A stretch of 64,000 nt of DNA, from positions 48,697,353 through 48,761,352 of the forward strand of contig CM060198.1 of NCBI GenBank assembly GCA_030549335.1. Reading direction: 5' to 3'. Position numbers and translations under genes: made by a program. This document shows, piece by piece, positions 8,931 through 51,419 of this stretch (the first letter of the stretch is position 1; each line of letters begins with the position of its first letter). The DNA comes from Pontederia crassipes. Lineage: Eukaryota > Streptophyta > Magnoliopsida > Commelinales > Pontederiaceae. A model generated the notes under the pieces. It made no database searches, was not told where the DNA came from, and saw nothing but the letters and a program-made list of their open reading frames with translations.

Positions 8931-9949
8931 GCATGGGACGGATGAGTGAAGAGGGAGCATGGCCCTGCCTCCTTATGGAGGTAGAACCAACATTAAGTCC
9001 TTAAACATTATATAAACTAGATTAACTCAATTGTGCTTCGTGCAATTTAAATATTTTTTTATTTTTTATTATAATATATAATATTTTTTAGCTACTATTT
9101 CTTGTAACATGCATTATACATTTTTTTAAAAAGTTGTAACATGCATTATACATATAAATATCTTACAATATGAATTAAGATAAATATTAATTAAGTTTAT
9201 ATTTTAAAATATTTAAGATGATTATAAAAAATATTATGTCTTTTATAATATTTTAATAAGTATTATTTTATATTTGTGTATGTGTGTTAGAAAAAAATAT
9301 ATTACAATTTTGCTATCAATAATTAATGATTATTTTATCTAAAATAATATCATATATTTATAAAAATAATATTGATTTTTTACATCCTACTCTATATAAT
9401 AATTAAAGATGTATGGTTAACATATGTGATACTTCAAATTAAAAAATAATTATGATTCTTCATATCCACAATAATGAAGTTAAGTAGATGTAAGATATGT
9501 GATTTTATAATTAAAAAATAATTATGATTCTTCACACTTAAGTAAAAGTTCTTAAGTTATCATAGTTTTGCATTAAATGAGTTTAATGAAATCAAGAAAT
9601 AATTCAAAAATAGGAGAAAAACGAAATTAGTCGAATAAGATCACCTCGATTAACTTTTTTATTTTAGAATATGAAAATTAAAATGGTGAAACAATGAATA
9701 TATTTTTCCATAATGATTATATGTTTAAACAGTATATTCATATTTCTCAAAGCAATTATTCATTTTCTTTTTTTAATATTACATAATAGTTTTTTATTTA
9801 TTTAAAAAACACATATATTATAATAGTGTGAAGCACAAGATAATGTGATTATCGTCCGCTCCTGCCTTCCGCCTGGACTCTGTGGTAGGAACCGTAACAA
9901 CGTCAGCCTGACGGACGTATTGCTCTCTGCCAGGCAATGCAAGCTCTTC
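8931..9949. other. AT-rich intergenic region with a short direct repeat
   Basis: No gene is supported. Two copies of a segment containing AAAAAATAATTATGATTCTTCA lie near 9439-9461 and 9514-9536. The region ends at the GC-rich pseudogene block that begins near 9840. Confidence 0.4.
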
Positions 9950-16970: not shown

Positions 16971-17610
16971 TTCGGTTAAAAAGTATATGGACATGTCTAT
17001 GCCAAATGCGTACAACGGTTGGATAACGCCGAATAGGGGTGTTCGAATCGACCTGTGAATTTGATGATCCGACCCGACTCGGATCAATAGTCGGGTCGAA
17101 TCCAACCCGACCCGAACTCGATCCGACGGGTCGGGTCGGTGAATTTGATGATCCGACCTGATTCGGATCAATAGTCGGGTCGAACTCAACTCAACCCGAC
17201 CCGAACTCGACCCGACGGATCGAGTCGGTACGAGTGGAACCCGACTTGATCCGACCCGATTTTTTATTTTTTACTTTTTTTATTTAAACTTAAAGTTTAT
17301 ATTTAATTTTAAAATTTTAAAAAATTAAAATAAAATATTTTAAATACAATTTTATACTTTTAAAATAATATTAAATAATATTTTTTATATTAAATAAAAT
17401 ATAAAATAGTAAGAAAAAAATTTAAAAAATAAAAAATTGTTCAACCACCCTATCCGATCTGAATTGGGTCGGATTAGATCGTCCCGACCCAAGATCGGGT
17501 CGGGTCGAGAACATCCCTAACGCCGAAGACTATCGTGCCCGCACTTCCGAGCGTCGCCTGCTTCCATTCTAGCGCATTCAGCATCAGCAGCCTATGGAAA
17601 GAAAGCACCA
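16971..17610 (-). pseudogene. Second copy of ABCB linker/TMD2 start, split by a hAT element
   Basis: Minus-strand frames read [21 protein letters not shown] up to 17528 and resume at 17033 with [18 protein letters not shown]. The same amino acids and most bases recur at 16480-16690. The hAT insertion at 17034-17519 divides this copy only, so it landed after the duplication. Confidence 0.8.
17034..17519. mobile_element. Non-autonomous hAT-type element, 486 bp
   Basis: An 8-bp target duplication ACGCCGAA (17026-17033, 17520-17527) flanks inverted ends TAGGGGTGTTCGAATCGACC and (reverse complement of the right end) TAGGGATGTTCTCGACC. The interior is AT-rich, with GC-rich subterminal blocks full of GGGTCG/CGACCC repeats on both sides. 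It has no coding capacity. 8-bp duplications with TAGGG ends fit the hAT superfamily. Confidence 0.85.
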
Positions 17611-18175: not shown

Positions 18176-18504
18176 AAATAGGAATGGACGAAAGATAGAA
18201 GTTTGAAACGCTTGCTTATCAGCTTTATATAAATATAAGATACGGAAGAAATACGAAAGGTTAGGAATGTAAGAGGTTAAGTTATTAAGTATTAAATTGG
18301 AATGTAAGAGGTTAAGTAGTAAATGGGGTAAATATATATGAGGTTAAGTACTCAACTGATAGTTAGAAAAGAACAAATTGAAGAAAAATTTGTAAATGAG
18401 GTTAAGCAGCGGATTCAGCCAAAAAAAGGAGAAAAAAGATAATTGCAAATGCTCAATGGATATCACTTTGAAATCTCCTCTTATGCATGAGAAAATATAC
18501 ATGA

Positions 18505-21715: not shown

Positions 21716-24700
21716 ATGATGGGTTCGAGGGGTTTGTTCGGGTGGTCGTCGCCCCACATGCAGCCACTGACGCCCGTGTCTGAGGTGTCGGAGCCGCCGG
21801 AGACGCCGTCCCCCTACATGGACAACGGCGGCGAGATTGTCCCCGTGGAGGTAGAGTCCGAGTACGAGATGGAGGAAATCGAGCCGCCCCCTGCCGCCGT
21901 CCCCTTTTCCAGGCTCTTCGCATGCGCCGACGGGATCGACTGGGCCCTCATGGCCGTTGGGGCGGTGGCTGCAGCAGCGCACGGGATGGCGCTTGTTATC
22001 TACCTCCATTTCTTCGGCCGGACCATCAACTTGCTCGACCTTGACGACAAGGATGAAATGTTTCATAAATTTAAGCAGGTGTGTTGTGACAAAAGAATTC
22101 GAATAATTAGGTCCTTTATAGAGGTTATTGTTAACAAATTCTTTAGGACTGGATACAGATATCTGCAGCAGGTGGCAGTTGCACATAAATTACCTGGACA
22201 AATCATTTGATCCTCGAAGTGCCTTTATGTGTATGAAGTCGTTGAGTATAGTTAGGTTACAGCAGTTCTTAGAAAATTCGTGTACCTGAGAGTTTGGCAG
22301 CACTGCTGAATATGTTTTTTCATGATGAACTCTTTAATTTTCAAAACAGTGTTAAATAACCCTCATGCTTGAAGTTTGATGGTAGTAGGAAGTCTCAATG
22401 TTGCTATAAGTCAGTGTATTCTAGTTCATTGATTTCACCTCTTGCATAAAACTTAATATGCAGAAACATGGTCTGTTCACTCTCGTGGAGAGAAAGGATT
22501 TATTGTGATGCACCAAGAAACAACAAACGGCAAAATCATAGCCAGTATGGTTATCATAATGTTCCTCTGAGTTATAATTGTTTCACAACTTCAGTTTACA
22601 TTCAATAAACTGATCTTGTTGATGTGGTTCGCATCCACAGGGGATGAAAACTTAGACATATTGTTTGGACCCCTCTCAAACAATGTTAAGCCAGCAAATT
22701 TAATGTGTCACATCTTGGGCTGTTCACCCTCATGGAAAGGATTTATTATTATTATTTTTTTGAAATAAGAAAGGATTTATTATGATGCGTCGAGAAACAA
22801 GAAATGACAGAATCATAGCCAGTATGGTTATTATAAGGTTCCTCTGAGTTATAATTGTTCACAAGTTCAGTTTACTTTCAATAGACTGATCTTGATGATG
22901 TGATTTCGCACCCACAAGGGATGAAAACTTAGACCTATTGTTTGGATGACTAGCACAAAAAGTCATCCTTTCCCCTCTCAAACAATGTAGACCAATTGCA
23001 ATTTTAATTTGTCACATCATTCTGTACAAGAATCAAAGGCTAAAGGGACGTTTTTCTTGTTTCTTTCTTTTTTTTTTTTTTGAAGGGGAAAAAGGATGAG
23101 CACCAAGTTAGGGTGTCATCCATATATATATCACTATGAAGGAAAAAGTACAAGTGTGAGCCCTCAAGATGAGAGCAGCAAAAAGGGAAAAAATACAATC
23201 ACTAGCCAAATCCCCACTCCTGAAGAGGAAAGGAGCAGTGGTGTACAATCGCCTCGAGTTGGCAACTCTTACTACAAAAGATAATCCGGTTGCGTTGAAG
23301 CCAAATAGCTCAAGCGCCAGTCAAAAATGTCGCCAAAAAAGTCGCCTGACATCGTCCGCTAGGGCTCTGAGAGATTGCCATAGCTCCTCTAGTGAGGTAG
23401 GAGGACCCCGAAATAAGCTCAGTCGTACCCATACCTCCTCCGCGTCACCACATAAAACGCAATGTGTGTCAGGCTGTCAGCTTGGGGTGCCCACCCCGCC
23501 TTATATCGCGTGGTGAGAATCCGCCCGTGCCGCATAAACCTTGACTTTAAGCGGCACCCTGAGTCGCCAAATGCATCTGAAGTCTGCCTGTGGGATGTTC
23601 GGGATCTGACAGGCTGGAAGGAAACGGAGATAAATGCTTCGAGCAGAAAAAGTCTCAGAAAACCATAGCCAGACGATACAGAGCGAGATGAGCCCCTTTT
23701 GATGACACTTCTTGTGTGCTATGCGGAGAGACGGATCAGGATATCATACATCTATTCTTCGGATGCACTATGTCCAGAGAGGTTTGGTCGAGACTGAGTT
23801 TGATCTGTGGTCATTTCCCTACACCTGAGGCATTTTGGCAGACCCTCAGAGCCACTGGCAGTCAGAGACACCATTGGAGGACTACATTGGCGACTTTCCT
23901 AGCCGGTGCATGGGCCATCTGGCTACAATGCAACCGGATTATTTTTTGTGGGGAGAGATTGCATGTTGACAGCATTGTTGCCATAGCTCTTTTCTTATTC
24001 GGGAGTGGGATTTTGTGTAGTGGTGGTACACTTCCTATCTTTTTTGCCGCTCTCGCTTTGAGAGCTTACACTTGTACATTTTTCTTATCATAGTGATATA
24101 TATCTATGGATGACACCCTAACTTGGTGCTCATCCTTTTTCCCTTCAAAAAAAAAAAGAAACCCATAGCCAGCAGGCGGTCCTAGAAGCGTCCGAACGGA
24201 AAGGAGTGATCCACTGATGGAGGTCCATAAGCTTAGAAATGCGTGTGTCGAAAAGTCCTAAAGGTGGGGGTCCATGAGCTGGTGCTAGGACCACCGGACT
24301 GAGACCATGTCTCCGCAACTGAAGAGTTTGGATGTGCCGCAAGAGCCAAGAGGCGAGGAAAGGATGCCGCCAAAGAGCCCCCGGAATCCAATCATGACGC
24401 TAGAACGAAAAGGACTCACTAGAGCCGAGGGAAGGAACCAAATATGGCCGAATCAGGGGAAGAAGAGCTGCGACACCCCTCCAGAAAGCAGATGCTCCAC
24501 GTGGGAGAACAACCCGAGAATCCCAAGAAAGGTCCTATCCATGACATGTAAAAAAGGCCGAGCGTCAGAGACAGTCATGAGATTCCATAATCCGTCCGAC
24601 CCACCAAGCCAATAAATCCTAGTTGGTATACCGGAGATCATGAACACCAAGCCCACCCTGGGAGGTAGGGCGGCAACAAATCTGTTAAGATACAAGATGA

Positions 24701-27700
24701 ATGGCCCGGATTAGAGGCACTCCTTTGCCAATAAAAACTACGTAAGTAAAGAATCCAACCTCCTCTGAAGCTACCCAGGCATCCGAAGAACAGACATATA
24801 GTAAATCGGCAAGGAAGATAAGACCGAGCGGAGCAGAATAAGATGGCCCCCTCGTGATAGCAACCTCGAACTCCAACCTTGCAACTTGTGCTCCATCAGC
24901 TCAATAACCGGTGTTCACATATGAGAGCCGATGTGATGGTCAGATAAAGGAAGCCCCAAGTAAGTGATCGGCAAGGCGCTAGTCGGAGTGCGAAGCTTAG
25001 ATGCATAGGCGTCCTCCTCCTCCAGGACCATGCCAAAAGGGATGAAAGATGATTTGACATGATTGATCCGAAGGCCGGATGCAGCCCCAAAAAGGTCCAC
25101 CATGATAGCTAGCTGCCTAGCCTCCTGTGCAGAGCCCTCAATGAAATATAATGTGTCATCATACTGGAGAAGTGGAGTAAGGCTGCCTGCAAAACCCTTG
25201 AAAAGACCGGTGGCACAAGAAGCCTGTGTGCATCTGGCGAGCGCATCGACCGCCAGGACAAATAGCATAGGTGCAAGGGGGCAGCCCTTACGTACCCCTC
25301 TTTGTGGCCGAATCCAAGTGTTAGTGGACGAGCCATTGATCAGGATTGAGAAGGAAGCGGTGGTGACGCATTGCTTCATCCACTCAATCCAAGATGTGGG
25401 GAAACGTCTGAGCTGTAGGGAGTGCAAAAAAAGATCATGAAACAGAGTCATAAGCTTTGGAGAAGTTGACCTTCCAATGAAAGACGTGATTGCAGGTCCG
25501 TCGCCAGTGCGCAATGATCTCTGCGGCCATGCTGTAGCTATCGGTGATGAAGCGGCCATGGATGAAGGCTGACTGTCCTGGATGAATGAGATCTAAAATC
25601 ACCTCACGAAGACGATTAGCCAATACCCGAGCCACCAAGAGATATGTAGCATTGGATATGGCAATCGGTCTGAAGTCCTCCATACACTCTGGTTGAGGTG
25701 CTCGAAACCCTGATTCCCACTAGTGAACTCGTGTATGACCGCCATAACTTCCTCCCGTACAACTGGCCAAAATTGCCGATAAAAGAACATCAGGAAGCCA
25801 TGGGCCAGGGGATGCGTCACTATTGAGGTCCCGAAGTGCCTCGGTAACCTCCTCAGAACCCCTGCAAAAGGAGAGAATTATGCTCGTCAGTGAGGTTCGG
25901 GATTCCCCCAGGCGACCACCTCCGGGGGCGGGGGGTTGTCGCCTAGAGGTCTCCCGATAATATGCTGAGATGGCATCCACGATGTGCTACTGGCCAGAAA
26001 TCTGCTGCCCCTGAACCATCAATCGGTCAATCTGGTTCTGTCGACGATGGGAGCTCACATAAAGGTGAAAGAAACGAGTGTTGGCATCACCCTCGCGGAG
26101 CCAGGTCTGTCGAGAGCGCTGTCTCCACTCAATCTCCACCTTCAAATCCTCGGAGCATATGGTCGACTTAGCCTGTCTGGGCTCAATAAGCTCCTACGCT
26201 CTGTCTAGCCTAGTGATAGTCCCGGGAGCCTTGGCTCTGTCGATCCTCTCGAATCTGCCTCTAGTGACCCTGAAGAAAAGCCCGCAGCCCAGCTAGGCGA
26301 GAGGCGAGGGTCCTGGTCGTAGTGTCGGAGGGAGAAGAACTTTGCCACTGATCCGCCACCAGCTGGCAAAAGCCGTCCTCCAAAAGCCATGACTGCTCGA
26401 AACGGAAGCGAGATCGGCGAGCCGTGGCCTCTCCAGACCGCCACAAGAGAGGTGTGTGGTCCGAGAAAGGTCTGTTCATAGCCTGAACATCCGCGAGGTG
26501 ATGGGCCTCCGCTAGCTCGAGAGATCCAAGAAAACGGTCAATCCTCGACCGGGCCACTGTACTCCTCCAAGTAAACCTGCAACCCGATGCGGGAAAGTCC
26601 AGCAAGGACTGAGAGGCAATAAAATCCCTGAACTCCTCAGCTCCGTAATCTCTCCCACTACGGACAAGAGGGCGATCATCCATGTTAAGTGTGACATTAA
26701 AGTGACCCCCAATGAGCCATCGAGTCTCGGGTAGTCGGGCCCATACCGCCTGGAGCTCCTCCCATAATGTAGCCCGAAGCGAGGCTGAGCAAGGGCCATA
26801 GACGCATGATATGAGGTACGAGCTATCATCCGCTCGAAGTTTGAGGTGTGCCGATAATGAAAATCTGTCCACTCAGGAGTCTACCAAGTCGAATAAGTCT
26901 CCTCGCCATCCAATAGTGCAACCCCAGGACCGCCCAATAGAAGCCAAGGAGATGTGTTCCGAAATTCAAAAACCCCCAATTTGAGACCAAAGAGAAGAGC
27001 CTCAATCCTCGAGCTTGGTTTCCTGGAGTAGAACCACATCAACATCCCATAACCACATCAACCCCTGGGCCAAGCCGACGGCACGGCGGTGGTAGAATTG
27101 GGTGAAGGGTGTCACAGTAGTGGAAGGGAGGTCGCCGCCGGAGGGAGGGGGCATTTGGCGGTGTAATGAGGTTCGCCGGTGCTTCGCGCTACCAGGGATC
27201 GAGGAGGGAGTCAATTGTAGGGGGCCGGCGAAGGAGTAAGACAATCGATGTTGTGGCGGTTTGTTGGAGGGATTTAGAGCTGTCGAAGATGGTGGCGGAT
27301 AGAGGGAGGATGGTGGTGTGGGTGCAGGCTCGCCTGACGGTGAAGGATCACCGGCAGTGGGCCTAAAGGTTGGAAGGAGATTGGCGTCGGCGTCGGACCA
27401 GAGGAGGAGGCAGAGGAGGGGGTGGAAACGTGAGTTGGTTTGGCTCGGCCGCGGGACCTGGGCCCGGACCAGGTTCGCATGCGACCTGTGGCGGCTGGAT
27501 TTGTGGTGGGGTTCAACTTTGGGTCAGGTGGTTCAATGGTGTTGAGGTTTGGGTGTGGCGAGTCCGACTGCGGATGGAGTGGTGGGTGTGGGCACGACAG
27601 CTGGGGCTTTTGAAATAAAGTGAAGCAGTTAGCTGGCTGTCGTACTCCTTCTGTATGGTTGGTGGTGCGGCTGTGGATGTGTCCCCTGTTCTCCGCCTGA

Positions 27701-30700
27701 GACGATGAAGCTGACCCGCCGGCGACAATGTCCGCCCACGTCGGTGCCGACCTAGAGTACTGCAACCAGAGGAGAAAACTGTTGGTGCCTTCGCGGAGGA
27801 CAATCAAGGGAGGAAGGGTTGCTTCCGGCTGCTGCTCAATCTCAACTGAGGTGGAAGGGACATCCGGCGATCCCAAGGTTGGGAGGGCAACAGATAGGGG
27901 GTTGCCGAAGAGTCGGGCCACCGTCAAGGCAATTTCCGGGCGAAGAAGGTGGAGCGGAATCCCTTGGATATCGACTTACCTGCGAACCAGCAGAGGTGCC
28001 ACCAATGCCCCTGTGTTCTCCGACCATATGCTCCACTGGACGCGACAGTGAGAAGGGAGGATGGAGGGGCTTGCCAAGAGCTGCTCACGCTGTTGCGGCG
28101 ACCCTGGAATGAATAACCAGGAGGTGGCATTGGGGGTACTCAGGTGAAAAGGCGGAGCTGCTCCGATACAAGCTATGATAGATAATTTTCCTCTCAAAAA
28201 AAAAGCTATGATAGATAACCGGAGAACAGTTGGATCAGGGGGAACACCATCAGCTTCGTCAACGATGCATTCCCGTAGGAACGCCACCGCCTGATGCACT
28301 TCTGGTGGCTGCTGAATGTCTATGGTGGGAGTCGACGGCGTCAGGTTCGCCTGAATATTCCACGCTGGACCTGGCGGAACGTTCGCAGGAGGACGTCGGG
28401 GACACTGTGCGCCGATGGCCCTCTCCTCTGCAGTAGAGACAACGAACAAGGCCTGAGCAGTGACGAGTGAAATGGCTGCTGCCGAGGCACCTGAAGCATT
28501 GACCTTCCAACACCGGGCAGGTGTCAAACTCTCCAGCGGACGATGGCGAGGAGCTGGATGGGAGAACGTTGTCCAGCCGTCAGGCTGGTGATTTGCCTTG
28601 CGACACATGGTGAGCACAGCGTAGGGAGGCGCTTCAGGCAGAGGTTGGCTAGGGCATGGGTGACGCTGCCAGCGTGGGGGGGGGGGGGGGGGGGGGGTTG
28701 TGTGTGTGTGGATGGCGCGTTTATTTCAGTGTACTAGTTAAGTGATGAGTTTTCAGGTTTTCCATCAGACAGTTGCAGTCTATCCCTTGTGCTTTTTAGA
28801 TTCAACTCTTTGACCTTGATCCTATTTTCATCTTCACTTCCTTCGACATTTATGAGAGACATCTTGCTGAAGCTGTCACAAGTAGAACTTGATGTCTTGA
28901 GATAAAGTTATGCCATCAGTGAAGCAGCAATGTTCCACCTCAACAGATGAATTCAAAAAGCTCCTTCTGAAAGGATATGTCCCTTATTTTCTTTATAATC
29001 CATATCAAACATATGTTGAGCATTCATTTTATCTTTTGATAGTGTGTCCAACGCAAAGTTTGTTATCAGTTTGCCATATCATTTTATTGTTGTTTATGTT
29101 TAGCATGCTTTCTTTAGTCATTCTTTGTGTACATGATTAATGTGTCATCATATTTGACTTCTCAAGTTTTTCTGTACAGCATGCCCTCTACATCATTTAT
29201 ATAGCAATTGGAGTCTTCATTGCGGGATGGCTAGGTAAGGTCAATATCCCATATATTTTGATTTCTCATTTGCTTAATCTCTTGGAATGAAGTTAGATCA
29301 ACCAACTTATAGAGGTCTCGTGCTGGATTCTTACTGGAGAGAGGCAGACTGCAGTCATAAGATCAAAGTATGTTCATGTCTTGCTGAACCAGGATATGAG
29401 TTTCTTTGATACCTACGGGAACAACGGGGACATTGTTAGTCAAGTACTAAGTGATGTGTTGCTCATCCAATCTGCACTGAGTGACAAGGTACCATTAAAG
29501 AATGTATTACTGTACAAGTTTCTTATTTTTGTTTAAACGTCAGCTGAAATTTTGGAAGTATATGTTATCTTGATTTTCTTTCCCCCCATTACACTTCATA
29601 TATGAAACATTGATTCTTCTACAGGTCGGCAATTATATTCACAACATGGCTACATTTTTCGGTGGCCTTGTCGTTGGTTTGGTGAATTGTTGGCAGATTG
29701 CGCTGGTGGCATTAGCAACTGGTATTTTCATCATCGGTGCAGGAGGAATATCAAATATATTTCTTCATAGGCTTGCTGAAAATATTCAAGATGCATATGC
29801 TGAAGCAGCAAGTGTAGCAGAACAGGTAGTTATTTGTTGAATTCAGTTTGTTTTATAACTTCGTGATTAAAATATTTAGTTATCTTTACTTCAAGGATTA
29901 TCTCATTTTACACTGCTAAGACAACTTAGTTCAGGACTGCAAAGGATTATACTGTTTACATAGTTCGGTCACACCAGGAAGATATTTTTCACGAGGGGAA
30001 AGTGAAGTAGTGTTGCATGAATCCTCCCAGACAGGTCAGATTGATGTTTGATCCATCTATGCAGGCTATCTCATACATTAAGACTTTGTACGCCTTCACC
30101 AACGAAACCTTGGCAAAGCATTCTTACGCAATATCACTTCAAGCAACCCTCCGTTATGGAATATTAATCAGTCTTGTGCAAGGTCTTGGTCTTGGGTTCA
30201 CATATGGACTTGCTATGTGTTCATGTGCCCTACAGCTTTGGGTTGGAAGATATCTCATTGTGCACAAAAAAGTCAATGGTGGTGAAATTGTCACAGCTCT
30301 TTTTGCTGTAATTCTGAGTGGCCTGTAAGTATTAAATCTTTATTGTTCTCTTGTTCTTGCTATCATTGTGTCGCACTTTTTCCTTTCCTAATGTGGTTTT
30401 GTACTTTAATAGTGGCCTAAATCAAGCTGCGACAAACTTCTATGCATTTGAGCAAGGGAGGATAGCTGCTTACAAGTTTTATGAGATGATAAGTCGTTCA
30501 AACTCCAGTGTAAATCAGGATGGGAGTACTTTAGCCACAGTACAAGGGAATATTGAATTCAGGAATGTCTACTTCAGCTATCTTTCACGTCCTGAAATTC
30601 CTATTTTAAGTGGTTTCTACTTAACTGTGCCTGCAAGAAAAGCTGTTGCCCTTGTTGGCAGAAATGGTTCAGGGAAAAGCAGCATAATTCCTCTCATGGA

Positions 30701-33700
30701 ACGCTTCTATGATCCCACATTAGGTATAATTTCTTTTGCTTTCCCTTTTAGGTGTACTATTCAATAAGAAACATGACATTGAATGGACTCCATTTGTTGG
30801 TGCAGGTGAAGTGCTTCTGGATGGAGAGAATATAAAGAACCTGAAACTAGAATGGTTAAGAAGCCAAATAGGACTGGTTACCCAGGAGCCTGCTTTGTTG
30901 AGTCTGAGTATCAAGGACAACATTTCTTATGGGAGATCTGCCACCTCTGATCAAATTGAAAAGGCTGTTAAAACTGCCCATGCACATACATTCATCAGTT
31001 CACTTGAAATGGGATATGATACACAGGTACTTTTGGCACATTTTCAACTTTTAAGTGACTGAATTTGTTTCTGCTGATCTTTTATTATACTATATTGTGC
31101 TTAATGAGTTGTATGAATTAAGGTTGGTAGGGCTGGCTTAGTCTTAAGTGAAGAGCAAAAAATTAAGCTCTCAATTGCGCGGGCTGTACTTTCAAATCCT
31201 TCCATTCTTTTACTTGATGAGGTCACTGGTGGCCTTGATTTTGAAGCAGAAAGGGGAGTTCAGGAAGCTTTAGATGTTCTAATGTTGGGAAGGTCCACCA
31301 TAATAATAGCCAGACACCTCAGCCTTGTAAGGAATGCTGATTACATTGCTGTAATGGAGGGGGGTCAACTTGTTGAAATGGGCACTCATGATGAATTGCT
31401 TACTCAAGATGGTCTTTATGCAGAGCTTCTTCGATGCGAGGAGGCAGTGAAACTTCTTAAAAGGTATAGTACACAGTTATACAATATTCTTGATACCTCT
31501 GTAAAATGTGTTTGGCATGAAAATAAGAACTGTTAGACGTTTCAGGTTTTGCTTCAAAGATATGTCATAGGTGAGTTCCCCATTATCTGTGTAAGTTCTT
31601 TCTAGGTGTCCAAGTGCCTTTCCAGTGCATGTTTCAAGTTGCATAACCACATTTGAAATTAATTTATCTATTTAGCAATTCAATATCCCTCTCCTTGATA
31701 TGAAAACACTGTTCAATATTCTTACATCTCATGTATTGCATCAGTACAGTACAAAGTACATCAACTTTCCCTCTCAAAAAAAGTACATCAACTTTTAAAA
31801 AGTAAAGTACGAGTATGGCAATCTGTATTCGATGTATTATTATATCAGAGATTGATTGTTGCGAACAAAATTATGAGATTTAAAATTTATAAATTACTAT
31901 ACTTTTTATTACTAAATATAATTGTGTCATGACATAATAATTTTAAAAGGAAAAATATGTTTCTTATTTGTTACTTGAATGGACCACTAGAGAATCTCAT
32001 GAACATGGATCAACGATGGCGTCGTATGATCCATGTAGCCGACCCCACCTAGTGGGATAAGGATTTGTTGTTGTTGTTGTTGTATATGCCTTTTTTTAAC
32101 ACCTGTCAGACTCAACAAATGTGGTGAACAACAGCACATGCTCTCCATAAAATAATATATCTTTTAGAAAACTGATCCCCATTGCAGAAAAGAGCAAAAT
32201 GACACATACCTTAAAGCCCCTGTTAACTTCTACCTGAAGAAACCTATTCTAGCATATTCTGCACTGCTGCCTCTTCTTCTATGTGCGATGTTGATTGTGT
32301 TATAATATAAAAAAGTAGGCGAAGTGCCCATTGTGCCTAGTTACCTTTATCTTCATGTTGCTTTTGTTACTACTAGTCAGTGTTACTTCCACCGGCAGCT
32401 TTGCTGTCAGTGGCCTAGTCAAAGGAGTATCACTTCTTTGTTCTTTGGTCATTTGCTTGATTTAGTTTGCTTCTCTTTTTTTTTAAATTTTCTTTGCCCA
32501 TTTGTTTAATCGTTACTCACATTTGTTATTGTTTTAAGGCATCCAAGTGTGTTTATGTTCTTGCTTAGCACAAGCATACCCTACATCAAACCCAAAACAC
32601 AACCATAAAATGTTATTTAAGTACTGGGTATATACCCGGGCATACTGATGCCTAGCTGTATCCAGTATGAGTAATCTCACTAGACTTTTTAACCCATGGA
32701 AAGCAGAAACTCATTATCTCGAAGGTCACTTTTCCTTCAGGGTCCGTTCACTGCATTGCCATTCAACATTACCTAGTATGTAGATTGCCTCTCAGAAAGA
32801 TTACCACTTGTTAAATTATCAGCAATGTACATTACCTTGTTTAATATACATAAGTAATCTATCTGGCAATCCATATTAGTTATTTATAAGAAAATACAAA
32901 TTTATGAGTTAATATATGATTTTTACCAATATACCCCTAATCAAAAGAATTATGTTTATGGATATAAATTATTTTTAACTTCGTAAAATTAAATCACAAA
33001 TATATATTCTCATCCATAAAATTAAAGTTTATAAAATAACTAATATATTTTTAAAATATGATAATAATATAGTCATAATAATTATAATATTTATTTGATT
33101 ATTTTATAATTTATTTAATTATTATTATAATTTATTCAAAATTACACTTGTTAAATTATCAGCAATGTACATTACCTTGTTTAGTATGCATAAGTAATCT
33201 ATCTGGCAATCCGTATTAGTTATTTATAAGAAAATACAAATTTATGAGTTAATATATGATTTTTACCAATATACCCCTAATCAAAAGAATTATGTTTATG
33301 GATATAAATTATTTTTAACTTCGTAAAATTAAATCACAAATATATATTCTCATCCATAAAATTAAAGTTTATAAAATAACTAATATATTTTTAAAATATG
33401 ATAATAATATAGTCATAATAATTATAATATTTATTTGATTATTTTATAATTTATTTAATTATTATTATAATTTATTCAATATGTTTTAGAATTTATTTAA
33501 ATAAAACTGTAAAGGACAAATGCGGAATGTAAAATTTAAAAGATTGCAACTCAGATGGTAATGTGGATTGCCTACTCTCCTATAGGCAATTTGCATTGCC
33601 ACTTCATAGACAATGTGGATTGTCTGGGCAATGCAGATTACCCATTATCTATCACAAGTGAACAAGGTAATGTGATGGACCCAGGTAATTTAATACAACA

Positions 33701-36700
33701 TTACTTGGTAATCCACAAAGATTACTTCTAGAGAAACGCCCTCTCAGGGAAATGGCTAGTAGTAAAATTGATGATGATATACTTCTTTTGAAGAAGTATT
33801 TTGACTTTATGAGATATTTGTTTGATGTTATTTCCCTTTGCTCTACCATGACTTACTGTTATAGAAGTCTAGAATTTAATGAGAGTGCACCTATAATCAT
33901 AATGGATGTTCAATCTGGATCAATGTTGTCAAAATCACATTTCAGATTGTAGAATCATATGATTCTATGTCCTTACGCAGGAAAAACATGCTCGATCCTA
34001 GGCACAATCATCTTTGGCCAGCACGCGGTAGAATCACGTGCGGGCCCATAAGATTGGTGGAGACGCATGCCTCCACCGATCCAACAAACCCTTCTTTTTA
34101 CCTTTTATAAGTCACTTATCGCTCCTTTCCTCCTTTTGTTTCCTGTCTGCCGATGTTGCTGTGTCATCGCTGCTGCTGACCTGCTGTTGCCGCCGCCGCC
34201 GTCCTGCTGCCACCGCCGCTCTCTGCTACACCCTCTCCCTTTCTCTTCTCCCTCTCTCCCTTTCTCTCTTCGCTCACCCGATCAGGCCTTCTCTCCCTCT
34301 CCTCTCACTTCCCTTTCTCTTCCTCTCCCTTTCTCTCTTCGCGGACGCGAACAAGCTTTCATTCCCTCGCCCCCTCCTCTCCTCTCTGTCCCTTCCCCTT
34401 TCTCTCCCTCTCCCTTTCGCACACCCGAGCATTTTTTCCCTCTCTCTCTCCTTCACACAATTAGCCTCTCATTTTTTTTCCACCATCGCTTCATGCTCTC
34501 CACAGTGGCGACGGCATCAGCATATGACCTACTGTCGCCGCGGTGGCACTCGTGGACTAGGAGCATTTTTATTTTTTTTAATGTTATAAATTTAGAACAA
34601 TTTTTTATAGTGCTACTATTGTTAATATTTGTTTAATAAAATGAGATCTGTTATTTTTTTATGAATTGATGTGCTAATTGTTATTATTATAATAATTTTA
34701 TTGATGTGTTAATTTTTCATGAATTAACTGTTAACATTATTTATTGATATCAATTGCCATTAGTCTGGTATTATTATAATTTTTTGAGGCGTTAATTTTT
34801 CATGAATTAATATATGTAATATATATAAGTAAATAGTTAATAATATCATGAACTTATAAGTTCAAAAGAATTTGCATCTCACCGTTAATTATTTATATAT
34901 ACATATATATATTTATATGTATTTATATCTGGTATATATTTAAAATGTATTTATATATATTAAATAAAACACCGGTAGAATCGGTCGTGTCGTGTTACGT
35001 GTTCACGATTTACGTGTTTTGCCGACCCTCCGTGCCGAACATGTTTTATGTGTTTGACAACATTGATCTGGATGTTATTTTAAGTACCATTTTTCTTAGT
35101 AGATTCGTATGCTTACCTTTTGGTTTGCAGAACACCTATTAGGAACCACAAGGGTCGCTCAACCTTTCAAATTGAGAAGGATTTATCACGGAGTGAAAGT
35201 TTCCAAGAGTCATCATCCCCGAAGATGACAAAATCACCTTCTCTACAAAGAACTCATGCTGCGAATGCTCTTCGGTACTTAGATTCCAATTATAATTCTC
35301 ATGAATCACCAAAAATCCAGAGCCCTCCTTCTGAGCAGATGTCTGAAAATGGACTGCCCTTGATGACATCTGAAAGAGCCCCATCTATAAAGAGGCAGGA
35401 CAGCTTTGATATGAGATTACCTGAGCTTCCCAAAATTGATGTCCATTCCATACAACGGCAATCTTGGAATACTTCAGACCTGGAGTCCCCTATTTCTCCT
35501 CTTCGTACTCCTGATCCTAAAAGTGTGCAATCTCATTCAAAGACATTTAACCGCCCTTTTAATCATTTTGATGATGTTTATATGGAGCAGAAAGAGATAC
35601 ATGAGATGGCGGATCATAAATCTCCATCTTTATGGAGGCTCGCTGAACTCAGTTTTGCAGAATGGCAGTATGCCCTTCTAGGAAGCATTGGTGCTGCAAT
35701 TTTTGGTTCTTTCAACCCTCTCCTTGCATATGCCATTGCATTAATAGTATCTGCATATTACAAAATTGGTAACAGTGATGTCCACCATGAGGTGAACAAA
35801 TGGTGTTTGATCATTTCATGTATGGGTGTCACTACGGTGGTTGCCAACTTTCTGCAGCACTTCTATTTTGGTATAATGGGCGAAAAGATGACTGAGCGAG
35901 TTAGGAGGATGATGTTTTCAGGTGATTGAATCAGATTTGACTTGTCTTATCTGTAGCTTTTTTTAGAGGGATTATCTGTAGCTTATGCTCAACTTTTTTT
36001 AATCATGTGTATCCTCATATATTATTTATTTCCAGCGATGTTGCGTAACGAGGTAGGATGGTTTGACGAAGAGAATAGTGCAGATACACTATCCATGCGC
36101 TTGGCCAATGATGCTACATTTGTTCGAGCAGCCTTCAGCAACCGTCTTTCTATGTTCATACAGGAGATCTCAGCAATCATTGTTGCAATACTTGTAGGGA
36201 TGCTATTAGAATGGCGAATTGCTCTTGTTGCATTGGCAACATTACCCATACTTACAGTAGCTGCTGTGGCACAGGTCTGCTTTGCTTTTTACATTATAGC
36301 ACTTAATACAAGTGGGACAACATTTCCAGATTTTTTGTTCATTGTTATTAGATCGATGCTCTTAATTCAATCAGGCAAATGTTCTATTGAATGTGACACT
36401 TGATTTTTTTTCTTTTCACAAAAAAAAATCTTGGAACTTCATTCATGAGAAAAGTGCAATTGAATGTCATAGAACTTCGTAAACTGGTTGACTACTTTGG
36501 GGTTAACTAGGTTAATGGGCATTCTGTAATCTGTAAATGTAGGCCGCACTATAGGGCATTCATCTACGATGTAAATATATAGCACTATGATATACGTGCA
36601 GTTAGAACTACATTGTGAATGTAGTAGCATTTTCTGCATGCTATTTATTCCAAGGAACATTGAATAAATCTTTTCACAATTGAGCCAGTTGCAAAAAGCA

Positions 36701-38232
36701 TCATGACCTGACAAAATGCATGGAGCATCTAGTTAATAGTCCACCCTTTTGAGGAGAATGGAGTACTAGAATTCTTTTGTTACATTGCTAGCCATCATTC
36801 CTTGCTCAAAGAAAAATGTCAAGTGGTCATCTATTTTTATATTTGTCCTCTAAAAGTTCATTAATCCTTATACTTAGCAAAACTTGTAGGTGCTTTGCAT
36901 TTTGTTCTCTTATTATAAACTTCGAATGACTAGGTTCTATGTTTAAGTACTTATTGTCTTGATGCTCAGTTTCTTATTACCAGCATTTTTTTCTGTTTGC
37001 AGAAAATGTGGCTTGCCGGATTCTCGAGGAGAATCCAAGAAATGCACAGGAAGGCATCGCTGGTCCTCGAAGATGCAGTTAGAAACATTTATACAGTTGT
37101 AGCCTTTTGCGCTGGTAACAAAGTAATGGAGCTATACAGATTACAACTTCGCAGAATACTGAAGAAGAGTTTCATACTTGGAATGGGCATTGGGTTTGCC
37201 TTTGGCTTATCACAACTTCTTCTTTTTGCCTGCAATGCTCTTTTGCTTTGGTACACTGCTGTTTCTATTAAGAATGACCATCTAACCATCTCCACAGCGC
37301 TTAAGGAGTATATAGTTTTCTCTTTTGCAACCTTTGCATTGGTGGAGCCATTTGGCCTTGCTCCATATATACTTAAAAGGCGGAAGTCACTAACATCAGT
37401 TTTTGAAATAATTGACCGTGAACCAAAGATTGATCCAGATGACAATGATGGTATAAAGCCACACAATGTTTTTGGGAGCCTTGAGTTCAAAAATGTTGAG
37501 TTCCACTATCCAACTAGACCAGAAGTGATGGTGCTAAATAATTTCAGTCTAAAAGTGAGCGGAGGACAAACAATAGCTGTAGTTGGCATGTCTGGATCAG
37601 GAAAGAGCACCATAATATCTCTAATAGAGAGATTCTATGATCCTGTTGCTGGCCAAGTTTTGTTGGATGGCAGAGATCTGAAGCTGTTTAATTTGAAGTG
37701 GTTGCGGAGCCACATGGGACTTATTCAACAGGAGCCAATTATCTTCTCAACAACCATAAGAGACAACATCATATATGCAAAACCCAAAGCAACTGAAGCC
37801 GAGATAAAAGAAGCTGCAAGTATAGCAAATATACACCATTTTATCAGTGGCTTGCCCCATGGCTATGACACACATGTTGGAATGAGAGGGGTTGATTTGA
37901 CTCCTGGGCAGAAGCAAAGAATTGCCATTGCCCGGATAGTGTTAAAGAATGCTCCTATATTGTTACTGGATGAGGCAAGCTCGGCAATTGAATCCGAGTC
38001 AAGTAGAGTTGTGTTAGAGGCCCTTGGCACTCTTATTATGGGAAACAAGACGACGATTCTTATTGCACATAGGGCGGCTATGATGAAACATGTTGACCAT
38101 ATTGTGGTCCTAAATTGTGGCAGGATTGCTGAGCAGGGAAATCATGATTCCTTGATGCAGATGAACGGTTTGTATGTGAGATTAATGCAACCTCATTTCA
38201 GTAAAGGTCTTCGTCAAAATCGACTTGTTTAG
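21716..38232 (+). CDS. ABCB20: ABC transporter B family member 6/20-like, 11 exons, intact
   Basis: Exons: 21716-22078, 29180-29234, 29313-29488, 29625-29825, 30065-30324, 30413-30723, 30806-31026, 31123-31463, 35131-35921, 36036-36274, 37003-38232. All introns are GT-AG, phases agree and the sum is 4,188 nt (1,395 aa), close to the roughly 1,400 aa of Arabidopsis ABCB6/ABCB20. Layout is TMD1-NBD1-linker-TMD2-NBD2. The N-terminus MMGSRGLFGW...QPLTPVSEVSEPPE is diagnostic. NBD1 has Walker A GRNGSGKSS (residues 434 on), a degenerate signature LSEEQ (537-541) and ARHLS where AHRLS is usual. NBD2 has GMSGSGKST (1181 on), LTPGQ (1285) and IAHR. It should be a plasma-membrane exporter; relatives in Arabidopsis are linked to auxin transport. 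Start is the first of two adjacent ATGs. Introns 1 (7.1 kb) and 8 (3.7 kb) are swollen by transposons, yet no exon is damaged. Confidence 0.95.
22468..23022. repeat. Direct duplication of about 260 bp in intron 1
   Basis: The block from CTGTTCAC...GGATTTATT through ATCATAGCCAGTATGGTTAT and GATGAAAACTTAGAC to CCCCTCTCAAACAATGT appears at about 22468-22715 and again at about 22719-23000 with scattered differences. The second copy also gained a small insertion at 22750-22768. Confidence 0.8.
22735..22783 (-). mobile_element. Micro-insertion with 15-bp target duplication (A-tail scar 1)
   Basis: GAAAGGATTTATTAT stands at 22735-22749 and 22769-22783. Between them are 19 bp that on the minus strand read TTATTTCAAAAAAATAATA. 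The sister copy of this intronic duplication lacks the insert. Confidence 0.6.
23090..27244 (-). pseudogene. LINE ORF2: endonuclease and reverse transcriptase
   Basis: The endonuclease (EEP fold) begins near 27100-27002 (VVLLQETKLED) and continues in 26261-26872 with VYGPCS, RWLIGGHFNVTL (usually GDFN; Asp changed to His), FTWRS, RIDRFL and SDHTPLL. RT lies in 24915-25683: EDFRPIAISNATY, QSAFIHGRFITDS, NFSKAYDSV, RGVRKGCPLAPMLFVLAVDAL and QYDDTLYF, where the catalytic pair is kept but the usual Ala before it is lost. A zf-RVT tail (FSARSIY, VPLKVKVYAARAD) is at 23460-23650. Frameshifts between segments make it defective. Confidence 0.83.
23673..24162 (+). mobile_element. 5'-truncated LINE (490 bp), inverted inside the larger LINE
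   Basis: A plus-strand copy of the same family's 3' end: CVLCGETDQDIIHLFFGC (zf-RVT) and W-rich tail to 24093, then a 3' UTR ending CATCCTTTTTCCCTTC plus an A-run. Flanking 10-bp duplications CCATAGCCAG are at 23663-23672 and 24163-24172. Its last roughly 75 bp are the reverse complement of the host LINE's 3' end at 23085-23155. Confidence 0.9.
27274..28617 (-). pseudogene. LINE ORF1 (nucleic-acid-binding, CCHC)
   Basis: 28259-28513 has two adjacent knuckles, CFRCLGSSHFTRHC and CLYCRGEGHRR, typical of plant L1 ORF1. 27976-28617 in another frame gives PPEVHQAVAFLRECI and the conserved core up to HCRVQWSIWSENTG. 27274-27927 is the proline-rich tail. The pieces are in different frames. A 33-bp in-frame gain at 28186-28218 is explained by a micro-insertion. 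Confidence 0.72.
28171..28218 (+). mobile_element. Micro-insertion with 15-bp target duplication (A-tail scar 2)
   Basis: AGCTATGATAGATAA at 28171-28185 and 28204-28218 brackets 18 bp, TTTTCCTCTC followed by A8. It lies in LINE ORF1 and adds 33 bp, keeping frame. Confidence 0.8.
28676..28710 (+). repeat. G22 homopolymer plus (TG)n
   Basis: A run of 22 G followed by TTGTGTGTGTGTGG. It sits at the presumed 5' edge of the LINE. Run length is prone to sequencing error. Confidence 0.8.
28711..29179. other. Remaining intron 1 sequence before exon 2
   Basis: Unique-looking T-rich intron DNA ending in TTTTTCTGTACAG at the acceptor of exon 2. Nothing else seen. Confidence 0.5.
31754..31795 (+). mobile_element. 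Micro-insertion with 15-bp target duplication (A-tail scar 3)
   Basis: AAGTACATCAACTTT at 31754-31768 and 31781-31795 surrounds the 12-bp insert CCCTCTCAAAAA, in intron 8 of the ABCB20-like gene. Confidence 0.8.
31990..32083 (+). mobile_element. SINE fragment, copy 2
   Basis: It shares GAATCTCATGAACATGGATC, GTCGTATGATCCATGTAGCC and the end AGTGGGATAAGG plus (TTG)n with the copy at 2218-2423, but begins mid-element (5' truncated). In intron 8 of the ABCB20-like gene. Confidence 0.85.
32745..33745. mobile_element. Possible TIR element containing a 340-bp tandem duplication
   Basis: The outer blocks have many copies of ATTACC/GGTAAT and GCAATGTGGATT motifs in both orientations, with ends GGGTCCGTTCAC and (reverse) GGGCGTTTCTCT next to TCA. 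This suggests an old MITE. Superfamily not established. Confidence 0.45.
32806..33480. repeat. 340-bp tandem duplication
   Basis: ACTTGTTAAATTATCAGCAA begins at 32806 and at 33146, and the following about 330 bp are almost identical (a handful of changes, such as AATATACAT versus AGTATGCAT). Very AT-rich, in intron 8. Confidence 0.95.
33921..35065. mobile_element. hAT-type non-autonomous element, 1,145 bp
   Basis: Inverted ends CAATGTTGTCAAA / TTTGACAACATTG with 8-bp target duplications ATCTGGAT at 33913-33920 and 35066-35073. A subterminal motif GTAGAATC recurs near both ends, including a palindrome TAGAATCATATGATTCTA near 33946-33963. The interior holds a G-box CACGTG and a pyrimidine-rich tract (34090-34450). 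Its open frames are composition artefacts. It sits about 60 bp before exon 9 of the ABCB20-like gene. Confidence 0.85.
34090..34460. repeat. Polypyrimidine low-complexity tract
   Basis: C and T rich with repeated CCCTTTCTCT units and a GCCGCCGCCGTCC patch, inside the hAT-type element. It gives spurious Pro/Ser/Leu-rich frames. Confidence 0.85.
35947..35984 (-). mobile_element. Micro-insertion with 13-bp target duplication (A-tail scar 4)
   Basis: TTATCTGTAGCTT at 35947-35959 and 35972-35984 flanks 12 bp that read TCCCTCTAAAAA on the minus strand. Located in intron 9 of the ABCB20-like gene, only about 25 bp after exon 9. Confidence 0.75.
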
Positions 38233-38951
38233 GGAATTACCGGTTATGCCCCTGTAAGTAATCTGGGGATATGATCATGATCTCTTTCACCCATTATTCC
38301 AAAGCTGAGGTTTCTTGACTCGGGAAACATCACATGCCATGCCAGTGGGATAAAATTTCTCTGATCATGGAAGTTTGATGAATGGGTGAAATAAGTGGAG
38401 AGATATGATGTACTTCTAACATGGCTAATCCCTTCCGGTTGTGATAGAAAAGGATTGATAGTAGTTATGGGATTTGGATAACAGTGTGCAAATGCAAGGC
38501 ATGTTTGGGTGTGGTGTGAAGCATTAATTCTTTTGGAGGTTTTCTTCCCCTTTGCTGGGTCCTGCCTCTATTGTGTATTAGTTGGTTAATCTAAAAAGAG
38601 ACCTGTATTTTTTTCCCTTAAGTCACAGTTGGTATCAGAGAGTTGTTTTCTAATGCTCCTCAAAAAAAAAAAAGTTGCTTTCTAATGTTAATCACCCTGT
38701 ACGTTGTCTTCCAGTTAGGTACCCGATTTGCAGTTTTTAGGTTTTGTGATTAGTTATCTTCATAACGTCTGATCTCATACTATTTCTCCTCCCGCCGGGG
38801 GCCTTTTGTTGTGCATGCAGACGTGGATAGATACAACAGAGTAACTTGATTTTTTCTGCTACATTGCGAGCCATCATTCCCACTTTGAGAATGGAAACAT
38901 GGCAACTTGTTCTTTCTCCGAAGGAGTTCCATCTCGGTTTGTTTTGTTTCA
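38233..38951. other. 3' UTR and downstream of the ABCB20-like gene
   Basis: T-rich, non-coding. It contains a micro-insertion at 38641-38687. No gene seen. Confidence 0.5.
38641..38687 (+). mobile_element. Micro-insertion with 15-bp target duplication (A-tail scar 5)
   Basis: AGTTGTTTTCTAATG at 38641-38655 and AGTTGCTTTCTAATG at 38673-38687 flank CTCCTC plus A11. Confidence 0.8.
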
Positions 38952-38963
38952 TGTATATATTTT

Positions 38964-39100
38964 ATAATCAGTCCCAAGCCCGGATAAAGGAGGAGGGTTG
39001 TGTTAGGTCCTGACAGCGTAAAATCCTATTGAATTTTATGAACATGGATCAACGAATATATAGTCGATCCCACTTAGTGAGATAAGGCTTTGTTGTTGTT
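38964..39100 (+). mobile_element. SINE, copy 3 (internally deleted)
   Basis: It carries CCCAAGCCCGGATAAAGGAG, GAACATGGATCAACG and GAGATAAGGCTTTG plus a (TTG)n end, but lacks the GTCGTATGATCC segment of copy 1. Near-perfect 12-bp flanks TGTATATATTTT / TGTATATGTTTT are at 38952-38963 and 39101-39112. Confidence 0.85.
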
Positions 39101-39112
39101 TGTATATGTTTT

Positions 39113-41250: not shown

Positions 41251-44200
41251 TGTCATTTTAGTTCCATTGGAAAGTACTCTTTGGTATTTAATCACAGCTT
41301 TCTGTGATTTAATTCCAATAATTAAGATTCTAAGAGGACGGTGTTTTCCTACGAAAAAGTCATGTGATATTATTTTAGGTGATTTTTCAAACTCATCTTT
41401 AGGGTTTCTTTGGAAAATAATTAATGAAAAGGTAGTGTGTTTTGGTACCATGAGTGATGGGCTGGTGAAACATAATATGTTAGGATAATAAATTATAAAA
41501 AATTTTGGGTGAGGTAATAAAAAATTATTTATGTAAAAGTTATTTTTATTTTTCATTATTTATTAAACATTTATAATATTTGATTAGTATTTATCGTATA
41601 ATCTTTTATCCTTAATATAGTTTTCTCTTCTATTCTTTATTTGACCTATGTTGTTTTTTATTATATTATTTTTTGTAATTATTTTACTCATATATTTTTA
41701 AAGTTAAAAATGAGAAATATAAATTGAACTATTTATAAAAACTTTTCTATCATAATATTTGTTTATCAATATTAGAGAGGAGGTTAAGGAGAGAGAAGAG
41801 AGAAGAGGGGGAGAGGGTTAATTTGGTTCAAAAAAATTTTTTCTTATTTCAACAATTTAGTCGAATGAGAAATATAATATTAATATAAATGTATATGTTG
41901 GGAATATTGCACCGATGATCGATGAAATCAAAACAACGAAGAAGAGAAAAGATGAACGCAAAGATTTAATGTGATAAAACTCTCTTGATCTGAACAAGAG
42001 AGAAACATCCACGGACAAAGGAGATCGTCGTCAGAAGAATTTCACTATGAGCAAAATAGAGAGAACATCATGATATCGAATAAGAGCATAAGATTTAGAT
42101 AATACAAAAATATTATGTCAACCGTAATTCATAACAAACTAATAAACTAAACCCTCAAGCTTTTATGGATTTGTTTTTCCCAAAGGAGCTTTATTTTCAG
42201 GGGGCGATTTTTTTTATTGAAAATTTATCTTAATGTCTAATAGGATCTCTGTTTTTTTTTTGTATTTTTAATCAAGGATATTTTGATATCTTTCTGTAAT
42301 TTCCTAGTAACAATAGAAAAGCTTTGTTACGACTTGAGATATGTTTACCTACATCAATAAACTGATTAATCATATAAAGATTTACTTCCTGTTTACCTCG
42401 ATCCAAGGCACATATTCACACTAACTCTGTAAATGAATAATTAATCTTGTTTCTTTTCTGCATGTAAACTTATATGGTGTTTATCAAAATTCATTCCTGC
42501 TGAGAACCATTTTAAAGGAAACACTGGACACTCTTTTCATTAGCAAATTGCCTTATAAGATTTTATGTTGGAAGATAATCTAATGATGGTTTCTTGTGTC
42601 CAGGTTCTGCAAAATGTTTAATTTAGTTTTAGAAGCTGAATTTTGGGGTATACTTGGATAGCTATTCAATTTGAGAAGTCAGGGATGTTGTCACTATAAT
42701 AAGAGAATGTGACTCACTTTGTTGTAGATCATGTGCAATAAAGAAGCATAACCTGGGCTCTTAAGATTCTCATTTTGGACTCTTGTGACTCCTTGTTTGC
42801 ATGATCTACCGACCACAGGAATTTTTTCGACAACTTTGAGTTAAATCACATTCTTAGAAATATCTTACTTGATGCTTATGAATTGCAACTTTCTGGAGGA
42901 TTTTTATGTTTAAAATCTTCCTGCACTCTGTTGGGATTAGCATCAATGACCTTGAATCAATTATTCGTGTGAATTTGAGTCTTCTATAACGTTGTTACAA
43001 TGGTTCCGGGCTTTTATTATTACAGAATGGTCAATCTTAACCAGTACCAAACTCTGCAAGATTTGATCATTGCCATGATAGGTTAATGTTCTGTTAGAGT
43101 TGTTGCTAGCAAGTAACTATTTGACAAATTCCATCTGCACGAATATGTTGTATGGAACACAATTATCAGAGTTTTGCAAGACTTATTGAATACAACTGTC
43201 TAGCTTTGTGCAAGCAACCAGGATCGAGTTGGACAGAGGAAAGAATCTAGTGCCAAAGCATGCCTATCCTGGTAGCATTTTTTCATTAAGAGAAGGTTGC
43301 GCCACTTATCCCTATAACTTTATAAAATCAGGATAACTGAGAATGACTAATCCTGTTGGGCTGTGACTATGAATTGATTGTTTCAGGATTGTTTAGCAGC
43401 TAAGCAAAGTACTTTGAGCAAATACATGATGTCTACAATATTTGGTTTGAGCGGTACTGCCTCTGTGGGAATGTTAGTTTTGTCAGTGACAACCACAGAA
43501 GTGATGGATCGATCTTTATCTTGATTCATCACTATAATGAAATGTTCTATGTCTCTAAATGCGCTGTGGCTTTCTTCGTCAGAAGAGAACTCATCTCTCC
43601 TTGGATGATATTGTAGTTTATCATTGTTGTACTTCTTTATGATGATTTTTAAACATCTCATGCGTGATACCATCATCAATTAGGAGCAGCCATGCAAGCC
43701 ACAAGCTGGATATTGAATTATAAGGTAGTTGTCCAAATTGGCAACGTTATGTTTATTTAATTCATGACCATTATCTTTGTGTTTTTTCTAATGGCGGTGT
43801 ACCAATTATTGTGTGTTGTGTTCTTTCTTGCCTTCCATTGTCTGGACCTTGCACTTTTTTGCGCCCTCTAAGAAGGGAGGCATGTGCTGCTCAGAGGACC
43901 ACTTGTGCTTGCTTCTGAGTGGACGAAGAAGAACAAGCTACAAGGAAAGTGTTCTTGTTGACTCTTTACTTCGATCATCTTTGATTATTGTGGTGTTGTC
44001 TCTTCATCTCTCGATCATTTAACTACACCTCGAGTACTTGTCATGAAATATGATGCTGGAAAGATAGTGTATAGTACGTAGGGACAATGTAAAGCACTTC
44101 TCTGTAATTAACAGCCACTATGTACTCAATTGAAACTTTCACCAAGCTGGAAAAGATGGTACCTGGTTATATTTACAACTCGATAATTCTTTTCTAACTT

Positions 44201-51412: not shown

Positions 51413-51419
51413 TTCTTAC

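What the first reader, a model, noticed from the sequence alone, without database searches (positions are those of the whole stretch)
22735..38687. Family of ultra-short poly(A) insertions flanked by 13-15 bp target duplications
At five places in and next to one gene the same architecture recurs: a 13-15 bp direct repeat surrounding a 12-19 bp insert made of a short pyrimidine-rich stub and an A-run (28171-28218, 31754-31795, 38641-38687 on plus; 22735-22783 and 35947-35984 in the opposite sense). The stubs TTTTCCTCTC-A, CCCTCTC-A, CTCCTC-A and TCCCTCT-A resemble one another and the 3' end of the local LINE, TTTTTCCCTTC-A. The parsimonious reading is target-primed reverse transcription that aborted after copying only the tail: LINE insertions truncated to almost nothing. 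Normal repeat annotation would miss these entirely, yet they add 25-35 bp of intron or coding sequence each.
Basis: partly seen in the sequence, partly recalled or inferred. Interest (0 to 1): 0.72.

Follow-up and report, generated by a model that had tools for sequence, protein, structure and literature searches.

The report
Tail-only LINE-like insertions near transporter gene
In and next to one plant transporter gene, four tiny insertions, each 6 to 10 bases plus a run of A between duplicated target sites, look like jumping-gene copies that stopped almost at once, a kind of scar that usual repeat annotation would probably overlook.

Summary
All five structures are at the stated coordinates; a wider scan adds a looser sixth, 9102-9153. 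Simulated sequence almost never gives them: 5 observed, mean 0.02 over 250 simulations. Four sites (28170, 31753, 35947, 38641) form a coherent core: duplication, 6-10 nt pure C/T stub, A-run, duplication. A pyrimidine tract of at least 6 precedes the A-run at 5 of 6 sites but at 1 of 157 other A-runs. Target-primed reverse transcription stopped after about 10 nt explains the core best. The source is not shown: the two local LINEs end CCC(C)TTC-A, the stubs differ. Site 22735 is a real length difference, since a diverged tandem duplicate holds one copy, but its stub differs. Against: structures with the run on the wrong side also occur (3; two lie in tandem arrays), and so do short duplications without any A-run, so break repair is a real background. 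The genome-wide test could not be run: the genome search did not complete (18 calls). In both LINE ends a strong RNA hairpin directly precedes the stub, a testable stall point.

The parts
28170..28218 (+). Core site S1: 16 bp duplication, TTTTCCTCTC + A-run, duplication; lies inside the first ORF of the minus-strand LINE A; adds 33 bp in frame
31753..31795 (+). Core site S2: 16 bp duplication, CCCTCTC + A7, duplication; intron of the ABCB gene (inferred). The duplication ends in TTT, so the insert may read TTTCCCTCTC-A (5' microhomology)
38641..38687 (+). Core site S3: 15 bp duplication with one mismatch, CTCCTC + A12; 409 bp past the ABCB stop codon
35947..35984 (-). Core site S5: 13 bp duplication, TCCCTCT + A7; about 25 nt inside an ABCB intron
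   Evidence: splice donor placed by eye from the flank
22735..22783 (-). Site S4, loose member: 15 bp duplication, TTATTTC-A7-TAAT; a diverged tandem duplicate upstream has the single-copy state
9102..9153 (-). Site S6, found here, loose member: 20 bp exact duplication around CTTTTT-A6; near-palindromic insert in AT-rich DNA
22466..22540 (+). Start of the first tandem-duplicate unit: single-copy counterpart of S4
23068..28700 (-). LINE A (RT domain by Pfam; endonuclease match just below Pfam's cut-off), 3' end GGATGACACC..GGTGCTCATCC-TTTTTCCCCTTC-A14; 5' end approximate, its duplication not found
23657..24172 (+). LINE B: 5'-truncated copy of 484 bp (23673-24156) nested in LINE A, ends TTTTTCCCTTC-A, flanked by a 16 bp duplication with 1 mismatch
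24108..24135 (+). 3' hairpin of LINE B (GGATGACACC/GGTGCTCATCC), -13.3 kcal/mol, z -4.5, directly before the stub

Best explanation
The four core sites (S1, S2, S3, S5) are non-LTR retrotransposition events that stopped almost at once. A LINE machinery nicked the target, primed on the poly(A) tail of an RNA ending in a short C/T stub, copied the tail and 6-10 further bases, and the cDNA was then joined to the second nick, leaving duplications of 13-16 bp. Shown: anatomy, excess over simulated sequence, similar stubs. Inferred: the enzyme, the source RNA (probably a LINE family related to the local one but ending CCTCTC-A), and the reason for the early stop (possibly the hairpin that precedes the stub in the local LINE ends). 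S4 and S6 may be the same kind or repair scars.
For: Anatomy exact. Excess over simulated sequence. C/T tract before the A-run in 5 of 6 sites and 1 of 157 other A-runs. Of 32 tracts of C/T(5+, at least 2 C) followed by A(4+), the four core sites score 12-16 for a flanking duplication, the next best 8. A truncated LINE with a 16 bp duplication lies in the window. Both LINE 3' hairpins fold with z -4.2 and -4.5 and end where the stub begins; no core stub, outside the duplication, is longer than 10 nt. A single-copy counterpart exists for S4.
Against: Stubs are not identical to each other or to the local LINE ends. No RNA or element ending CCTCTC-A was identified. Wrong-polarity structures occur too (3 to 5; two of the three lie in tandem arrays), and short duplications without an A-run exist (18264, 27032, 59640). 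The test for a local filler template does not exclude one: the whole stubs of S2 and S3 occur within 500 bp, as they do around 29% and 53% of 100 random places. Only four core sites in one window, picked because it looked striking. No orthologous empty allele for the core sites.
Confidence: 0.7

Rival explanations
1. Repair scars: staggered double-strand breaks were filled in and rejoined with a few non-templated or ectopically copied bases, giving short duplications with filler, as described for rice insertions (Vaughn and Bennetzen 2014, seen only as cited in PMC7407515).
For: Short duplications with filler but no A-run occur in the same window (18264-18317, 27032-27062, 59640-59671; also 62708-62742), exact short repeats as such are far over-represented (16, mean 0.21 simulated), and the wrong-polarity control is not empty (3). 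The stubs of S2 and S3 occur whole within 500 bp. S4 and S6 fit this about as well as TPRT.
Against: It does not predict a similar C/T stub plus A-run at four sites. Stub matches in the 500 bp flanks are no longer than at 100 random places, though stubs this short give that test little power.
Confidence: 0.2
2. Same mechanism, other RNA (overlaps with the best explanation): the four core inserts are retrotransposed 3' ends of various poly(A) transcripts (mRNA or SINE RNA) moved in trans, not of a LINE family.
For: Stubs differ from each other and from the local LINE. Plant L1 elements presumably recognise poly(A) and mobilise SINE RNA and mRNA (PMC3747384, passages).
Against: Four C-rich pure pyrimidine ends are unlikely from random transcripts; only 1 of 157 other A-runs in the window has such an end.
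Confidence: 0.25
3. Chance coincidence in AT-rich DNA.
For: Repeats are short, and the finding was selected by eye.
Against: 5 observed, mean 0.02 in 250 simulations; 4 observed, mean 0.005 in 200.
Confidence: 0.02

Closest known systems
5'-truncated L1-clade LINE insertions (TPRT with premature stop)
   Same: Poly(A) at the 3' end, duplication of 13-16 bp, truncation at the 5' side, possible microhomology at the 5' junction (S2)
   Different: Only 6-10 nt of non-A sequence remains; source element not identified
Retropseudogenes and other RNAs moved in trans by L1 (compare the tailless class mentioned in PMC3747384, passage)
   Same: Flanking duplications (recalled as a trait of retropseudogenes); the RNA need not be a LINE
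   Different: Here the tail is nearly all that remains, the reverse of tailless copies
Tandem duplications with filler from break repair in rice (Vaughn and Bennetzen 2014, through PMC7407515)
   Same: Short duplication around a short insert; such cases exist in this window
   Different: The core sites have similar C/T stubs and an A-run
Plant L1 and SINE 3' hairpin of the monocot 1a lineage (PMC3747384, passages)
   Same: A stable hairpin close to the 3' end
   Different: That one has CGAG on its 3' flank; here the 3' flank is TTTTTCCC(C)TTC-A

Membership tests
TPRT insertion (non-LTR type) | Target site duplication of variable length, about 7-20 bp (range recalled) | tested here: met
   13-16 bp at the core sites, 15 and 20 bp at the loose ones
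TPRT insertion (non-LTR type) | Poly(A) next to the second copy of the duplication | tested here: met
   S1, S2, S3, S5, S6; S4 has TAAT between
TPRT insertion (non-LTR type) | Fixed polarity: A-run on one side only | tested here: inconclusive
   5 correct and 3 mirror-image structures in the real window; two of the 3 lie in tandem arrays
TPRT insertion (non-LTR type) | T-rich nick site on the primed strand | tested here: inconclusive
   Duplications begin AAGCT (S1), AAAGT (S2), AGTTG (S3), AAGCT (S5), ATAAT (S4), ATGTA (S6); read by eye, no statistics
Local LINE family (LINE A, LINE B) | Same 3' end sequence before poly(A) | tested here: not met
   LINE ends CCCCTTC-A and CCCTTC-A; stubs CCTCTC-A, CCCTCTC-A, CTCCTC-A, CCCTCT-A
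Local LINE family (LINE A, LINE B) | Further copies with ends intermediate between stub and LINE | tested here: inconclusive
   22944-22982 has hairpin + TTTCCCCTCTC-AAA, but no local alignment outside the two LINE ends reached 14; hairpin-plus-stub pattern 3 in the window, LINE A and B included, 0 of 300 simulated windows, a null without inverted repeats
Break-repair filler insertion | Filler copied from nearby DNA | tested here: inconclusive
   Stub matches within 500 bp no longer than at 100 random places, but S2 and S3 stubs occur there whole
Any insertion | Orthologous empty allele | not testable with these tools
   No related plant genome was reached; a paralogous single-copy state for S4 only

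The most novel reading that the evidence does not exclude
A strong hairpin just upstream of the C/T stub at the 3' end of a LINE family stops reverse transcription about 10 nt after it leaves the tail, so the genome fills with tail-only scars of 25-35 bp that outnumber recognisable LINE copies; four in about 10.5 kb would mean a very large hidden class. The stub length limit (at most 10 nt) would mark the base of the hairpin.
Probability: 0.22. Interest if true: 0.72.

Novelty: new variant of a known kind. Interest (0 to 1): 0.45.

Why it matters
If such scars are common, LINE activity in plants is undercounted, introns and UTRs gain A-runs and 25-35 bp indels from retrotransposition unnoticed, and these small indels, whose duplications here are nearly identical, could be young markers between cultivars. 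They would also make the early steps of reverse transcription visible in genomes: how often it stops within the first ten bases and whether RNA structure decides it.

Tried and rejected
Tried: the repeat unit at 22944-22982 (hairpin followed by TTTCCCCTCTC-AAA) as a LINE relic linking the CTCTC stubs to the hairpin. Rejected as proof: no place outside the two masked LINE ends reached a local alignment score of 14 to the LINE end, where the best score of 60 simulated windows is 12.5 on average and 17 at most. It is palindromic, its flanking TAGACCTATTG/TAGACCAATTG repeat is weak (read by eye), and its tandem twin differs by 25 bp. Kept only as a lead.

Tried: 9443-9534 as a longer TPRT product; by eye the repeat extends to about 26 bp and holds the A-run in both copies, so I treat it as a tandem duplication. 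A scan for inserts up to 8 kb lists 9 rows: S1, S2, S5, S6, the repeat at 9443, three rows from two 2 kb direct copies, and 42316-45557 (15 bp repeat, 3.2 kb apart), which was read and not counted: no LINE feature seen by eye. That scan's threshold misses LINE B and S3, so the lack of middle-sized inserts is not strong evidence. 62908-62913 (TCCTCT-A6) has no convincing duplication (score 7).

Tried: relatives of the LINE in viral contigs (one exact 19-base match, on a contig that by eye is prokaryotic or phage; two pattern matches, neither a relative) and in genome contigs (none). LINE A's own duplication was looked for and not found. Rfam gave no match.

Tried: papers on tail-only insertions (search listings: 20 of 128 papers shown, 15 of 91, 12 of 44, 12 of 97, 6 of 6, 3 of 3, 4 of 4; passages of PMC12016303 and PMC2912911). 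I saw no description of this class there, which is no proof of absence. Vaughn and Bennetzen 2014 is not held.

Full report
Observation. The five structures are in the sequence as described. With maximal boundaries the core sites are S1 28170-28218 (+, 16 bp repeat, TTTTCCTCTC then A-run), S2 31753-31795 (+, 16 bp, CCCTCTC-A), S3 38641-38687 (+, 15 bp with one mismatch, CTCCTC-A) and S5 35947-35984 (-, 13 bp, TCCCTCT-A). S4 22735-22783 (-, 15 bp) has the insert TTATTTC-A7-TAAT and fits loosely. The scan adds S6 9102-9153 (-, 20 bp exact repeat, CTTTTT-A6), also loose because its insert is nearly palindromic and lies in AT-rich DNA.

Chance. Exact repeats of at least 12 bp, 3-40 bp apart, number 16 here and 0.21 on average in 200 order-3 Markov windows; with a correctly placed run of six or more, 4 here and 0.005 on average, 1 of 200 windows having any. 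With mismatches allowed, inserts of 3-25 bp and simulations fitted to local composition, the mean is 0.020 and the maximum 1 in 250; the window has 5. The same call gives the result against the reading: with the run on the wrong side the real window has 3, simulations 0.016. By these are 17368-17397, 48827-48881 and 62708-62742; the first two lie in tandem arrays listed. With inserts up to 60 bp the counts are 7 correct and 6 wrong. Several of the 16 exact repeats have no A-run (18264-18317, 27032-27062, 59640-59671). Short duplications with filler are therefore a background process here, and polarity alone does not prove TPRT.

The stub. Of 165 A-runs of six or more on both strands, 6 lie in the sites, 2 are LINE ends and 157 are background. 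A pyrimidine tract of at least 6 precedes the run in 5 of 6 sites and 1 of 157 background runs (p = 4e-8); with at least 3 C, 4 of 6 and 1 of 157 (p = 2.6e-6). Conversely, of 32 tracts of C/T(5+, at least 2 C) followed by A(4+), the four core sites have flanking duplications scoring 12-16 and the next best scores 8. This joint occurrence, not the duplications alone, makes the four look like a family. The sites were chosen by eye before these tests, so the p-values are descriptive.

Source. The window holds an L1-type LINE on the minus strand (LINE A, 23068 to about 28700; two endonuclease models at E 1e-4 and 3e-4, below Pfam's cut-offs, and RT at E 6.6e-12) and a nested, truncated plus-strand copy (LINE B, 23673-24156) with a 16 bp duplication with one mismatch. 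LINE B shows that ordinary TPRT occurred in this locus. Both end in a hairpin GGATGACACC..GGTGCTCATCC followed at once by TTTTTCCC(C)TTC and poly(A); the hairpins fold at -13.3 kcal/mol, z -4.2 and -4.5. The stubs resemble but do not equal this end: CTCTC, CTCT or CTCC in place of CTTC. A related LINE subfamily is a natural guess; no such element was found, because the genome search did not complete (18 calls) and three scans of virus and prokaryote collections found no relative. A repeat at 22944-22982 with a similar hairpin and TTTCCCCTCTC-AAA is only a lead.

Empty sites. S4 sits at the start of the second unit of an old tandem duplication (88.9% identity over 180 columns). The first unit has one copy of the duplicated sequence and no insert; aligned with the filled unit it leaves a 30 bp gap, with the joined flanks a 4 bp gap, and the score is better with the flanks joined (59.1 and 53.3). 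This shows a length difference at the expected place, though not its exact ends or its direction. S1 lies inside LINE A, so it is younger than LINE A; its 33 bp keep the frame and repeat LSIIA in the reading. No orthologous empty alleles could be examined.

Place. The gene encodes an ABCB transporter; the best match among solved structures is ABC transporter B family member 19. S4, S2 and S5 are in introns as inferred from reading frames and a tblastn of parts of the protein on the window, S5 about 25 nt past a splice donor placed by eye, S3 409 bp past the stop codon. None appears to be in the transporter's coding sequence. That the window comes from a monocot such as a palm is my recollection, not a result.

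Mechanism. Most likely an L1-type machinery nicked the target, primed on poly(A), copied 6-10 further bases and stopped; the cDNA was joined at the second nick, perhaps by microhomology (S2: TTT shared by duplication and insert). In PMC2912911 (passages) microhomology and abortive intermediates are discussed for human 5'-truncated L1. Why so early? In the two local LINE ends the hairpin ends just 11-12 nt above the tail, and no core stub, outside the duplication, is longer than 10 nt. A stall at the hairpin would explain the limit; with four sites and no known source this is a hypothesis. The search for a local filler template is not decisive: matches of the stubs in their 500 bp flanks are no longer than at 100 random places, but the short stubs of S2 and S3 occur there whole.

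Known or new. Extreme 5' truncation belongs to a known mechanism. In the listings seen (the first four capped) I saw no paper on tail-only insertions as a class in plants. I rate it a new variant of a known kind, of moderate interest, rising if the genome-wide scan shows many.

Noticed in passing
32797-33482: Tandem duplication of about 341 bp, 98% identical, in the ABCB intron
   Followed up: no
49423-51414 and 56260-58239: Two direct copies of about 2 kb, 92.6% identical, 6.8 kb apart, possibly two LTRs of one element
   Followed up: no
2232-2422, 31992-32088, 38956-39108: Dispersed short repeat family with a TTTGTTGTTGTTGTT end, pieces 72-96% identical; possibly SINE-like
   Followed up: partly
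22491-23044: Old tandem duplication, unit about 277 bp, whose units differ by a 25 bp hairpin piece
   Followed up: partly
28170-28185 and 35972-35984: The duplications of S1 and S5 resemble each other (AAGCTATGATAGATAA and AAGCTACAGATAA), perhaps a target preference
   Followed up: no
59178-60445: Dense inverted and tandem repeats of CCGTCG/CGACGG motifs, like the ends of a DNA transposon
   Followed up: no
62708-62742: 15 bp exact duplication around only 5 bp (ATTTT), a short duplication with filler
   Followed up: no
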